Shown piece by piece: positions 3,627 to 5,694 of a stretch of DNA of 64,000 nucleotides. The first letter of the stretch is position 1. The number at the start of each line of letters is the position of its first letter. The translations under genes and the position numbers were made by a program. The notes beneath the pieces were generated by a model. It was not told the origin of the DNA, searched no databases, and saw nothing but the letters and a program-made list of their open reading frames with translations. The stretch covers positions 1 to 64,000 of the IMG/VR virus record IMGVR_UViG_3300013126_000021. One strand, 5' to 3'. This DNA is from a virus.

Positions 3627-4064
3627 TTAGAAAGTGCTTTTAAGCCCGAAAGTAATTAGAGAGCCTTCGTAATTGGTATCATTTTTGATATCCCAACGAT
3701 AACTATAATCGGCTGAAACAGAGAGGTGTTTATTCAAAGGATAAGAAAATTCAACACCAGTGGCCACAACACCACCACTTTTAAGTGTGCTCGTATCAGC
3801 CCTGATATAGTTTAGTGAGGTGTAAGGAAGAAGCCCAACACCAAAAACGGTGAAGGTTTTTCCTACGCTCGTTCCAATACTGTGATAAGTTCCTTCAACC
3901 CGCGACAAGTCAACAGAAGTATGAAGCCCTACAACTTTAGTCCCAACGGTAAGAACAGTGAGATCCCTATCAAATTTCCGATCTGTACCAACGGATAGCC
4001 CAATATCGGCGGCTTGAACGCCGAATGCAGAGGCCATCAAAATAGCAAAAACAGTTTTACGCAT
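3627..4064 (-). CDS. Secreted outer-membrane beta-barrel protein
   Basis: 145 residues with a clear signal peptide (MRKTVFAILMASAFGVQAA, cleavage after AQA). The rest alternates polar and hydrophobic residues in short strands and ends in Phe (GLKSTF), typical of small outer-membrane barrels of Gram-negative bacteria. RBS AAAGGAG precedes the ATG. A function in changing the host surface or excluding other phages is a guess. The gene is bracketed by two copies of a hairpin repeat, suggesting it arrived as a cassette next to ssrA. Confidence 0.85.
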   Translation of the reverse strand: MRKTVFAILMASAFGVQAADIGLSVGTDRKFDRDLTVLTVGTKVVGLHTSVDLSRVEGTYHSIGTSVGKTFTVFGVGLLPYTSLNYIRADTSTLKSGGVVATGVEFSYPLNKHLSVSADYSYRWDIKNDTNYEGSLITFGLKSTF

Positions 4065-4089
4065 TATAAATCTCCTTTTTTTAGTGAAA

Positions 4090-4279
4090 TGGTGGGTTAT
4101 TCTGTTACGAGGAAACCCACCGAAACCCTAGGCTGAGTTTAGGCAGCCAATGCGAAACGATCTTCGTTTGCGTTTACTTCATTTGCTTCTTCGGCCGGGT
4201 AGCCCCAACCCTAACGGCTTTCACATTGCCGTGTAGATCCTTCGACTAATATTCTGTCAATCGATACTGTTTCAGGCCC
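4090..4279 (-). ncRNA. ssrA: tmRNA coding piece (5' tRNA-like half plus tag-coding mRNA domain) of a permuted ssrA
   Basis: Begins with GGGCCTG (4279-4273), which pairs with CAGGTCC (4360-4354) to give a 7-bp acceptor stem containing G3-U70, the alanine identity pair of all tmRNAs. A D-like stretch (AAACAGTATCGATTGAC) follows, then pseudoknot-like hairpins. The tag frame at 4171-4139 reads GCA AAC GAA GAT CGT TTC GCA TTG GCT GCC TAA: Ala-Asn-Glu-Asp-Arg-Phe-Ala-Leu-Ala-Ala-stop, preceded by the usual GTAAAC context. tmRNA rescues stalled ribosomes and tags the nascent protein for proteolysis. The tag resembles those of betaproteobacteria. The 3' end is uncertain; I include the hairpin at 4091-4121. 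Confidence 0.92.
4091..4121. repeat. Hairpin repeat copy 2, at the 3' end of the tmRNA coding piece
   Basis: GGTGGGTT and AACCCACC form an 8-bp stem. The surrounding unit (4092-4127) repeats copy 1 (3583-3614) with a few changes and a slightly longer loop. The two copies flank the outer-membrane protein gene. Confidence 0.75.
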
Positions 4280-4349
4280 ATCAGAAACACACTAGAATAC
4301 AGTTTTCTCAGTTCAGACTTTAGAGTATCTTATCGGGCTAGTGTGCTTC
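4280..4349 (-). other. Intervening segment of the permuted pre-tmRNA
   Basis: Lies between the CCA end of the acceptor piece (4350) and the first base of the coding piece (4279). CTAGTGTGCTTCT (4338-4350, plus strand) and AGAAACACACTAG (4283-4295) are complementary over 13 positions with one G-U. In the precursor this helix continues the acceptor stem almost without a break, as expected for a processing stem that is removed to give a two-piece tmRNA. Confidence 0.8.
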
Positions 4350-4366
4350 TGGTGGACCTGGGCGGC
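4350..4366 (-). ncRNA. ssrA: tmRNA acceptor piece, 3' fragment (T-stem 3' strand, acceptor strand, CCA)
   Basis: CAGGTCC-A-CCA at 4360-4350 is the acceptor 3' strand, discriminator and encoded CCA. The five bases before it, CCGCC (4365-4361), should be the 3' side of the T-stem. They pair with GGGGG of the upstream fragment except for a central G-G mismatch. The exact exon start is not resolved. The HNH gene separates this fragment from the rest of the T-arm by about 590 bases. Confidence 0.75.
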
Positions 4367-4408
4367 ACTGCCCCGCCGTCTTGCCCAGTGTTCGTCTTAG
4401 GCCTTATA

Positions 4409-4912
4409 CTACAATTTCATAACTCGACCTTTATTATAACCAAGTTCTATATAATGGTCAAGTAATTCTTTTTTTATTTTCAAATTTCCTTTTTCTGGAT
4501 GATAAACCCAACACGTACCATATTGAGAATTTTTTTCAGCTTTTCCTCTACCAGTTTTTTTCCAAGTTTCCTTTTTCTTGGCGATAGCTTCTGGAGTATT
4601 TCCCAAAGAAGCTACATATTTTCTAAATTCCTCATTGACGGAAAAATTATGACTAGTTTTTATACCTGAAAATGGATTACCTGAAATTCTCAATCTTTTT
4701 TTTGCTGCCTCACTTTGTATCATTGATATCAGTTCTTTTCTTGGTATCATTTTACTCAAGCCTAGCCAAGCAACATAATCTTCCCAACGACCAAACTCTT
4801 CAAATAGTTTTCTGTGTGCTTCTGCATGTTCTTCAACAGACAACTCAATTAAATTGCTTTCCTCGTCTGTTCCGCCCATGTGTTTTGGTATAATATGGTG
4901 TTTATGTTTCAT
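4409..4912 (-). CDS. HNH homing-type endonuclease inserted in the tmRNA T-loop
   Basis: 167 residues. N-terminal KHKHHIIPKHMGG, a conserved NL and EEHAEAH form the HNH nuclease core. The C-terminus (GTCWVYHPEKGNLKIKKEL; LGYNKGRVMKL) is of the kind found as a DNA-recognition tail in phage homing endonucleases. It has its own RBS (AGGAGG) and a perfect T4-type late promoter TATAAATA just upstream. Such enzymes cut alleles lacking the insertion and spread by repair. Whether it sits inside a group I intron or is a free-standing insertion is discussed in the findings. Confidence 0.93.
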   Translation of the reverse strand: MKHKHHIIPKHMGGTDEESNLIELSVEEHAEAHRKLFEEFGRWEDYVAWLGLSKMIPRKELISMIQSEAAKKRLRISGNPFSGIKTSHNFSVNEEFRKYVASLGNTPEAIAKKKETWKKTGRGKAEKNSQYGTCWVYHPEKGNLKIKKELLDHYIELGYNKGRVMKL

Positions 4913-4930
4913 AGAGCCTCCTATTATATT

Positions 4931-4938
4931 TATTTATA
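4931..4938 (-). promoter_or_regulatory. T4-type late promoter for the HNH gene in ssrA
   Basis: TATAAATA on the minus strand (TATTTATA on plus), 19 bases upstream of the ATG, with AGGAGG between. It matches the T4 late consensus exactly. Confidence 0.75.
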
Positions 4939-4955
4939 ATAGTTCAACTCTTTGA

Positions 4956-5003
4956 ATCGAACCCCCGTCCAGAACACTTTTTGGTCAACTTCATACAGTC
5001 ATA
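4956..5003 (-). ncRNA. ssrA: tmRNA acceptor piece, 5' fragment (P2 strand and T-arm 5' half)
   Basis: Contains GTGTTCTG (4977-4970) and TTGAC (4988-4984), which pair with CAGAATAT (4256-4249) and GTCGA (4246-4242) of the coding piece to rebuild helix P2. Then comes GGACGGGGGTTCGAT, the T-stem 5' strand and start of the T-loop, as in other tmRNAs. The fragment ends inside the T-loop. GTTCGAT (4962-4956) can pair with GTTGAAC (4948-4942) leaving a terminal U-G, as in the P1 helix of group I introns. The 5' end is set from the promoter at 5010-5038. Confidence 0.82.
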
Positions 5004-5009
5004 AATGAT

Positions 5010-5038
5010 ATTATACTACACTCCTATTTATTTGTCAA
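5010..5038 (-). promoter_or_regulatory. Consensus sigma70 promoter for ssrA
   Basis: TTGACA (5038-5033), 17-base spacer, TATAAT (5015-5010): a perfect host-type promoter reading into the tmRNA acceptor piece. It overlaps the last codons of the exonuclease gene. Confidence 0.9.
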
Positions 5039-5694
5039 GTGTTTTTATGGTAAAAATCAATATATTCTGCAAGTGTTGTAATATAATTTTTAGTTTCCTC
5101 TTCAAAGATCAGAGAAACTCCTTCATCCACTGCCATAACAATTACTATTTGATCAATTGGTTCGCCTACCAATTCTTCATACATTAAAGAGTATGCAGTA
5201 CATTGCGCAAAATAATCAGTAATTTGTTCTTTTGTCTTGATCTTTTGTGATGTTTTAAAATCAATAACAGAAAGTTTTCCTTTCCATTCCGCAATACAGT
5301 CTACTCTACCTGCCAATCCAAGTTTTTCAGACCAAAGTGATTCTTCCATAAAATGAATATTATTAATATATTTCAAATCACGAGCAATTTTACGGAACAT
5401 ATAAACGCCATCGGGCATTTCTGTATTCCAATTTATATCTTCATTCAGTAGATATTTTTCAATTATGTTGTGCATTTTAGTGCCACGCCCAGAGGCAAAT
5501 CTAGATACGCGATTTGCCTCTTCTTCACCTACTTTTCTTCTCCATTCCAGAATGGATTGTTTCTTTTTTGCGCCTATTACTGTCGTAACGGAAGGTAACA
5601 ATTTACCACCGGGAGTAGTGTAGTATCTTTTTCCGTCAGTGTGTGTAACAGAGTTTAGTTTAGGTAAAGTTTTTGGAGGGCAGTGTATAAACAT
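5035..5694 (-). CDS. PD-(D/E)XK exonuclease (RecB/Cas4-like)
   Basis: 219 residues. GRGTKMHNIIEKYL is the His-containing motif of RecB-type nucleases; GRVDCIAEWKGKLSVIDFKT carries the catalytic D...D-x-K. Related genes are part of the core set of many T4-like cyanophages and are usually called exonuclease. Likely processes DNA ends in replication, recombination or host DNA breakdown. The start overlaps the PhoH stop by one base. Confidence 0.88.
   Translation of the reverse strand: MFIHCPPKTLPKLNSVTHTDGKRYYTTPGGKLLPSVTTVIGAKKKQSILEWRRKVGEEEANRVSRFASGRGTKMHNIIEKYLLNEDINWNTEMPDGVYMFRKIARDLKYINNIHFMEESLWSEKLGLAGRVDCIAEWKGKLSVIDFKTSQKIKTKEQITDYFAQCTAYSLMYEELVGEPIDQIVIVMAVDEGVSLIFEEETKNYITTLAEYIDFYHKNT

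What the first reader, a model, noticed from the sequence alone, without database searches (positions are those of the whole stretch)
4090..5038. Phage-encoded, circularly permuted two-piece tmRNA (ssrA) with tag ANEDRFALAA
Seen: the acceptor strands GGGCCTG and CAGGTCC (with G3-U70 and an encoded CCA) occur in reverse order, CCA first. They are joined by a 70-base segment that forms a processing hairpin, and are followed by a tag frame Ala-Asn-Glu-Asp-Arg-Phe-Ala-Leu-Ala-Ala-stop. Helix P2 can be rebuilt between the distant pieces (GTGTTCTG with CAGAATAT, TTGAC with GTCGA). A perfect sigma70 promoter precedes it. Known: two-piece tmRNAs exist in alphaproteobacteria, cyanobacteria and a betaproteobacterial lineage, and some phages carry tmRNA. 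A permuted form on a T4-like phage would be notable. It could rescue ribosomes or redirect tagging in infected cells.
Basis: partly seen in the sequence, partly recalled or inferred. Interest (0 to 1): 0.93.

Follow-up and report, generated by a model that had tools for sequence, protein, structure and literature searches.

The report
Mobile nuclease gene inside phage tmRNA
A virus of bacteria carries a two-piece ribosome-rescue RNA (tmRNA) whose gene was invaded by a mobile DNA-cutting gene that apparently came with a replacement tRNA-like end, so the tmRNA still looks complete while half of the old end lies stranded upstream.

Summary
The permuted two-piece tmRNA is real: Rfam tmRNA_permuted 100.7 bits against a cutoff of 47, tag ANEDRFALAA, encoded CCA, G3-U70. 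Permuted tmRNAs in phages were already published (PMC9004378). The upstream segment used to rebuild helix P2 (5003-4954) is a stranded remnant of an older acceptor piece, cut off in its T-loop. The working tmRNA lies downstream (4413-4091), its first bases overlapping the end of the HNH gene. Three covariation signals, calibrated on about 147 phage tmRNAs, tie the coding piece to the downstream acceptor piece. A close relative (L140) has the uninterrupted allele: it matches the window up to TTCGATTC and again from CGGCAATG; the stretch between, HNH gene plus a different tRNA-like domain, is replaced. The HNH stop codon lies inside the new acceptor piece, and its last codons contain a near-perfect sigma70 promoter. 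The same layout recurs with other HNH and GIY-YIG endonucleases; 14 of 50 records of this HNH family have it within 1 kb of a tmRNA match (2.6 expected). Most likely intronless homing with co-conversion of the tRNA-like domain. Homing activity and RNA processing are inferred, not shown.

The parts
5010..5038 (-). Old promoter: TTGACA-17-TATAAT (12/12), upstream of the displaced remnant; would now read through remnant, endonuclease gene and tmRNA
   Evidence: Scan; region shared with the uninterrupted allele in L140
4954..5003 (-). Displaced remnant of the former acceptor piece: P2 strand (GTGTTCTG 4977-4970), GAC, T-stem GGGGG, T-loop TTCGATT plus C; the rest of the T-stem 3' strand, acceptor strand and CCA are gone
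   Evidence: 96% identical over 50 nt to the intact acceptor piece of L140, then identity stops
4931..4938 (-). TATAAATA, T4-type late-promoter-like box in front of the endonuclease gene (inferred)
   Evidence: Sequence; consensus TATAAAT as quoted in PMC9004378
4917..4922 (-). AGGAGG ribosome-binding site of the endonuclease gene
   Evidence: Sequence
4409..4912 (-). HNH homing-endonuclease gene (167 aa, P0001); its TAG stop (4411-4409) lies inside the new acceptor piece
   Evidence: PHROG 655 homing endonuclease E=1e-10; Pfam HNH E=8e-4, just under its cutoff; invariant H5,H6,P9,G13,G14,D16,N20,H29,H33 in 22 homologs
4433..4461 (-). Embedded promoter TTGACC-17-TATAAT (11/12) inside the last endonuclease codons (LLDHYIELGYNKGR)
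   Evidence: codon-shuffled gene gives a score this good in its last 100 nt in 0.25% of trials; 72 nt from the acceptor strand against a usual 55-70
4350..4413 (-). Working acceptor piece: P2 outer strand TGTAG 4413-4409, P2 inner CTGGGCAA 4388-4381, T-arm GGCGG-GGCAGTG-CCGCC 4377-4361, acceptor CAGGTCC 4360-4354, ACCA 4353-4350
   Evidence: Rfam alignment; covariation
4280..4349 (-). 70-nt intervening spacer with long terminal hairpin, expected to be removed in maturation
   Evidence: Fold z=-4.3
4232..4279 (-). 5' part of the coding piece, from the replaced tract: GGGCCTG, D-loop AAACAGTATCGA, P2 inner TTGACAG 4260-4254, P2 outer CTACA 4236-4232
4091..4231 (-). Rest of the coding piece: pseudoknot region, tag frame 4171-4139 (ANEDRFALAA), terminal hairpin with GTAACAGAA
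   Evidence: About 97-99% identical to L140; Rfam
4232..4953 (-). Whole replaced tract relative to the uninterrupted allele of L140: endonuclease gene plus new tRNA-like domain
   Evidence: Breakpoints from alignment to L140

Best explanation
The phage has a permuted two-piece tmRNA gene that a free-standing (intronless) HNH homing-endonuclease gene has invaded. The endonuclease arrived joined head-to-tail to a complete replacement tRNA-like domain (acceptor piece, spacer, D-arm, P2). Double-strand-break repair across a tmRNA cut near its T-loop would have copied the endonuclease plus this domain into the recipient. That strands the first half of the old acceptor piece upstream and keeps the recipient's tag and pseudoknot part. 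The tmRNA stays usable because the last endonuclease codons double as a sigma70 promoter and as the first bases of the acceptor piece, so the tmRNA no longer needs the stranded half. The new acceptor piece pairs with the coding piece as in ordinary two-piece tmRNAs; it should be charged with alanine and tag stalled proteins with ANEDRFALAA. Shown: gene order, breakpoints, the stranded remnant, complete structure and covariation of the downstream tmRNA, recurrence with several endonuclease families. Inferred: endonuclease activity and target, the homing mechanism, use of the embedded promoter, processing and function of the RNA.
For: (1) tmRNA: Rfam 100.7 bits vs 47. (2) Empty allele: L140 aligns to the window up to 4954 (TTCGATTC) and again from 4231 (CGGCAATG) into the next gene; it has an intact T-arm and no insert. 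(3) Partner assignment: over 147 phage tmRNAs, T-loop and D-loop bases covary (TT with G 82/82; GG with A 21/21) and the first three P2 pairs match in 145/147 (111 Watson-Crick vs 66 shuffled, max 78); the outer P2 helix also covaries (GGTTGT/ACAACT, TGCTGT/ACAGCA, GATCGT/ACGATC). By all three the window's coding piece fits the downstream acceptor piece, not the remnant. (4) Recurrence: other endonucleases sit directly before a tmRNA with the stop codon in the acceptor piece: L320/L327, L008 (GIY-YIG with a P0001-like C-terminus), a second HNH family (L089, L225, L410, L413, L416, L421), L121, with stranded remnants cut at different points: T-loop in L331, L320 and (antisense gene) L119; P2 in L089, L421; after the D-loop in L121. 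(5) P0001-family genes lie within 1 kb of a tmRNA match in 14 of 50 records, 2.6 expected. (6) Embedded promoter. (7) dN/dS 0.06-0.32 in the second HNH family.
Against: No activity, transcript or processing data. The tract is a patchwork: its spacer best matches L207, a canonical-type tmRNA, so several exchanges are possible. The embedded promoter is clear only in the window, L008 and the tRNA-linked L002, not in the other endonuclease families. The exact window junction was found in no other searchable viral contig, so this allele rests on one assembly. The predicted fold of P0001 had no significant PDB match.
Confidence: 0.75

Rival explanations
1. Passive mosaicism: ordinary recombination between phages brought in a new tRNA-like domain and the endonuclease gene merely hitch-hiked or landed next to it; it no longer homes or never targeted the tmRNA.
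For: An identical T-arm/D-arm cassette occurs in 8 different P2 backgrounds, including loci where no endonuclease homolog was detected nearby; the spacer of the tract has a different closest relative; no activity is shown.
Against: Several endonuclease families sit at the same place with stranded remnants; strong clustering of the P0001 family at tmRNA; low dN/dS in the second family.
Confidence: 0.18
2. One reading: the acceptor piece uses the upstream P2 strand (4977-4970), so the tmRNA spans the endonuclease gene and works as three pieces.
For: A 9-bp match between GTGTTCTG and its neighbour and the coding piece.
Against: Such a match is found with most non-cognate acceptor pieces (111 of 145 give 8 bp or more); wrong partner by T-loop/D-loop, inner P2 and outer P2 covariation; the downstream piece already has a full T-arm and P2 strands.
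Confidence: 0.04
3. The endonuclease gene lies in a self-splicing intron, as in tmRNA genes with T-loop group I introns, and splicing restores the T-arm.
For: The remnant breaks off in the T-loop, the known group I intron site of tmRNA (PMC11915505).
Against: No group I or II intron match up to E=5 in 3900-5200; only about 60 nt of the insert are outside the reading frame; joining the halves would pair GGGGG with CCGCC and clash with the D-loop type.
Confidence: 0.02
4. The tmRNA is a decaying pseudogene left after endonuclease insertion.
For: Insertions can break genes; in L121 the downstream copy has CTACACTA in place of CTCCACCA; the window's inner P2 has an internal loop.
Against: Window: 7/7 acceptor pairs with G3-U70, 5/5 T-stem, CCA, intact tag frame, covarying tertiary bases, embedded promoter; Rfam score twice the cutoff.
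Confidence: 0.08

Closest known systems
Permuted two-piece tmRNA of phages (Methylophilales phage Melnitz, Pelagibacter phage Mosig; PMC9004378) and Rfam RF04321/RF01849/RF01850
   Same: Gene order acceptor piece, spacer, coding piece; CCA; tag frame; Rfam scores above cutoff for RF04321 and RF01849 (RF01850 slightly below)
   Different: Here an endonuclease gene overlaps the start of the acceptor piece and the remnant of a second, older acceptor piece lies upstream
tmRNA genes with a group I intron in the T-loop, 4% with a homing endonuclease (PMC11915505)
   Same: Mobile DNA invading the T-loop region of tmRNA
   Different: No intron core, no splicing; the paper lists intron and permuted as separate forms; function is apparently kept by a replacement domain
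Free-standing T4 endonucleases with embedded promoters for the downstream gene (segG before gene 32; segA, segE, mobB, mobC; PMC2988022)
   Same: Endonuclease carries the promoter of its neighbour in its own coding sequence, thought to favour its retention
   Different: The neighbour is an RNA gene, and the endonuclease also overlaps and accompanies part of that RNA
SegB of T4, between tRNA genes (PMC2988022)
   Same: Free-standing endonuclease at tRNA-type genes
   Different: SegB lies in a tRNA intergenic region; here the gene runs into the RNA (and in L002 a P0001 homolog runs into tRNA-Val)
Split nrdA of phage Aeh1 with an endonuclease insertion (PMC2988022)
   Same: Intronless endonuclease insertion into a gene that keeps working
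   Different: There both halves are used; here the first half appears abandoned and replaced

Membership tests
Permuted two-piece tmRNA (RF04321) | Covariance-model score above the curated cutoff | tested here: met
   100.7 bits vs 47, full model 1-213
Permuted two-piece tmRNA (RF04321) | Acceptor piece with CCA precedes the 5' acceptor strand, joined by a removable spacer | tested here: met
   ACCA 4353-4350, spacer 4349-4280, GGGCCTG 4279-4273
Permuted two-piece tmRNA (RF04321) | Alanine identity pair G3-U70 | tested here: met
   GGGCCTG with CAGGTCC, read from sequence
Permuted two-piece tmRNA (RF04321) | Tag reading frame ending in a protease signal and stop | tested here: met
   ANEDRFALAA-stop, 4171-4139
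Permuted two-piece tmRNA (RF04321) | P2 helix joining the two pieces | tested here: met
Permuted two-piece tmRNA (RF04321) | Two mature RNA pieces, aminoacylation, tagging | not testable with these tools
   Needs RNA and activity assays
Group I intron form of tmRNA | Group I intron core in the T-loop | tested here: not met
   No intron match up to E=5
Free-standing HNH homing endonuclease | HNH motif / family match | tested here: met
   PHROG 655 E=1e-10, Pfam HNH E=8e-4 slightly below its cutoff, invariant motif residues
Free-standing HNH homing endonuclease | Allele with insert and otherwise matching allele without | tested here: met
   Window vs L140; L089 vs L305
Free-standing HNH homing endonuclease | Site-specific cleavage and biased inheritance | not testable with these tools
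   No activity data
Free-standing HNH homing endonuclease | Solved structural relative | tested here: inconclusive
   AlphaFold model pLDDT 74; HNH nucleases among PDB hits but all E>1

The most novel reading that the evidence does not exclude
Phage tmRNA genes host a class of composite mobile modules, endonuclease gene plus overlapping promoter plus replacement tRNA-like domain, that move by homing and swap the tRNA-like half of tmRNAs between phages while leaving the tag half in place. Because the endonuclease stop codon lies inside the acceptor piece, maturing the tmRNA would cut the stop off the endonuclease message, making that message a substrate of the tmRNA itself and so limiting endonuclease synthesis (this last step is untested).
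Probability: 0.4. Interest if true: 0.78.

Novelty: new variant of a known kind. Interest (0 to 1): 0.6.

Why it matters
Integrases and introns preserve the tRNA or tmRNA genes they enter by restoring the 3' end or by splicing. Here an intronless endonuclease appears to preserve its target by bringing a replacement RNA domain and promoter. If right, homing drives domain shuffling of tmRNA across phages, explains stranded acceptor halves and mixed tRNA-like domains, and warns annotators: ARAGORN missed this tmRNA and a reader joined the wrong halves. The T-loop/D-loop and P2 covariation rules found here assign the right halves.

Tried and rejected
Group I or II intron: no match, no room. The idea that the coding-strand CAGAATAT is a fossil complementary to the remnant: dropped because TTGACAG also occurs in L299 with its own downstream partner and because the remote match is not specific. 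A stop codon inside the acceptor piece as a mark peculiar to endonucleases: not so, an exonuclease gene does it in L207. Embedded promoter as a general rule: holds for the P0001-type C-terminus in three cases only. Bacterial homologs of P0001 at tmRNA: the one scan of genome contigs gave only two weak or partial relatives. Named phage isolates: no record covers most of the 961-nt region, and the tblastn hits to P0001 are partial; the best, in S-SKS1, lies among protein genes. A second contig with the same junction was sought and not found. Fold comparison: inconclusive.

Full report
What is there. The minus strand carries a permuted tmRNA that passes Rfam's cutoff twofold (100.7 bits vs 47). 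ARAGORN reports nothing.

Between the 'upstream P2 strand' and the CCA lies a 504-nt gene (4409-4912) for an HNH homing endonuclease (PHROG 655, E=1e-10; Pfam HNH just under its cutoff; motif residues invariant in 22 homologs). The upstream segment ends in a truncated canonical T-arm (GGAC-GGGGG-TTCGATTC), while the segment at the end of the endonuclease gene and beyond it contains a complete second T-arm (GAC-GGCGG-GGCAGTG-CCGCC) followed by the acceptor strand.

Which acceptor piece is the partner. I collected phage relatives by the neighbouring exonuclease gene and by conserved coding-piece motifs, with some added through the endonuclease, and parsed 147 distinct tRNA-like domains requiring only acceptor and T-stem pairing and a loose D-loop pattern. 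Three features not used in the selection covary. T-loop second base and D-loop base 18 go together (TT with G 82/82, GG with A 21/21, TG with A 38 or G 5). The three P2 pairs next to the T-arm match in 145/147 (111 Watson-Crick vs 66 in shuffles, maximum 78). The outer P2 helix shows compensatory types GGTTGT/ACAACT, TGCTGT/ACAGCA, GATCGT/ACGATC, GACTGT/ACAGTC. The window's coding piece has D-loop A, inner TTG and outer CTACA. The downstream piece has GG, CAA and TGTAG, all fitting. The remnant has TT, CTG and GACTGT, which do not fit.

How it arose. L140 is a near relative without the insert. Its promoter region, P2 strand and T-arm match the window up to 4954; from 4231 through tag, terminal hairpin and the next gene the two agree again; between them the window has the endonuclease plus a different tRNA-like domain. 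L089 against L305 shows the same picture with another HNH family. Stranded remnants of older acceptor pieces, cut in the T-loop (window, L119, L331, L320), in the acceptor strand (L332), in P2 or before it (L089, L421, L415, L225, L416) or after the D-loop (L121), precede endonuclease genes of three kinds, mostly sense genes running into a complete tmRNA; in L119 the endonuclease gene is antisense. A Rfam search confirms the tmRNAs of nearly all these records. P0001-family genes are within 1 kb of a tmRNA match in 14 of 50 records, 2.6 expected for random placement within the same records. In the second HNH family dN/dS is 0.06-0.32.

How it probably works. The endonuclease stop codon (4411-4409) is part of the outer P2 strand, and the codons for LLDHYIELGYNKGR contain TTGACC-17-TATAAT at about the usual distance from the acceptor strand. 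L008 has the same arrangement. L002, the closest full-length homolog, has TTGACA-17-TATAAT and runs into tRNA-Val. T4 endonucleases are known to carry promoters of their downstream neighbours, thought to favour retention, and free-standing endonucleases move by break repair with co-conversion (PMC2988022). I therefore favour homing with co-conversion of the tRNA-like domain. A TATAAATA box and AGGAGG before the gene suggest late expression of the endonuclease (inferred).

Limits. No expression, cleavage or processing data exist. The exact junction is in one contig only (records very near the window may be left out of that search). The spacer of the tract resembles L207, a canonical-type tmRNA, so more than one exchange is likely. 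The host is unknown; the phage is T4-like by gp59, whose best matches among isolates are cyanophages at under 40% identity.

Known and new. Permuted tmRNAs in phages are published (PMC9004378), as are T-loop group I introns with endonucleases in tmRNA genes (PMC11915505). The searches of the open paper library found no report of intronless endonucleases overlapping tmRNA or of replaced tRNA-like domains; subscription papers were not covered.

Noticed in passing
L002:3001-3620: The closest full-length homolog of the window's endonuclease lies in a 25-tRNA cluster; its last codons (ATG CGG GAT TAG) are the 5' end of tRNA-Val and a perfect TTGACA-17-TATAAT lies just before.
   Followed up: partly
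L121:1500-3200 (also L201, L227): A GIY-YIG endonuclease sits between two tRNA-like domains of one tmRNA; the upstream one is complete, the downstream one reads CTACACTA instead of CTCCACCA.
   Followed up: partly
L013:2900-3600, L052, L059-L064, L003, L081: P0001-type endonuclease genes placed in the spacer between CCA and the 5' acceptor strand of permuted tmRNAs.
   Followed up: partly
L004, L005, L011, L015, L018, L076, L119 (sequence before the endonuclease ATG): Endonuclease genes, mostly antisense to a neighbouring tmRNA, are preceded by D-loop-like GGTTTCGAC or GGATCGAC next to a TAAATA box, possibly a target-like operator comparable to I-TevI autorepression.
   Followed up: no
L155, L159, L170, L181, L189, L214, L311, L321: An identical T-arm/D-arm cassette (AAGACGCGGGGGCAGTGCCCGCCAGGTCCACCA with ACACAGGATCGATTGGG) occurs in clearly different P2 backgrounds, suggesting shuffling of the tRNA-like domain without an endonuclease nearby.
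   Followed up: no
L275 minus strand, just before the tmRNA: Short stretch LVRGRLMAVN resembling the endonuclease C-terminus without an endonuclease gene, perhaps a scar of endonuclease loss.
   Followed up: no
147 phage tmRNAs: T-loop second base and D-loop base 18 covary (U with G, G with A), an alternative elbow contact in alpha-type tmRNAs.
   Followed up: partly
window 3627-4064 (-): Small outer-membrane beta-barrel-like protein directly downstream of the tmRNA.
   Followed up: no
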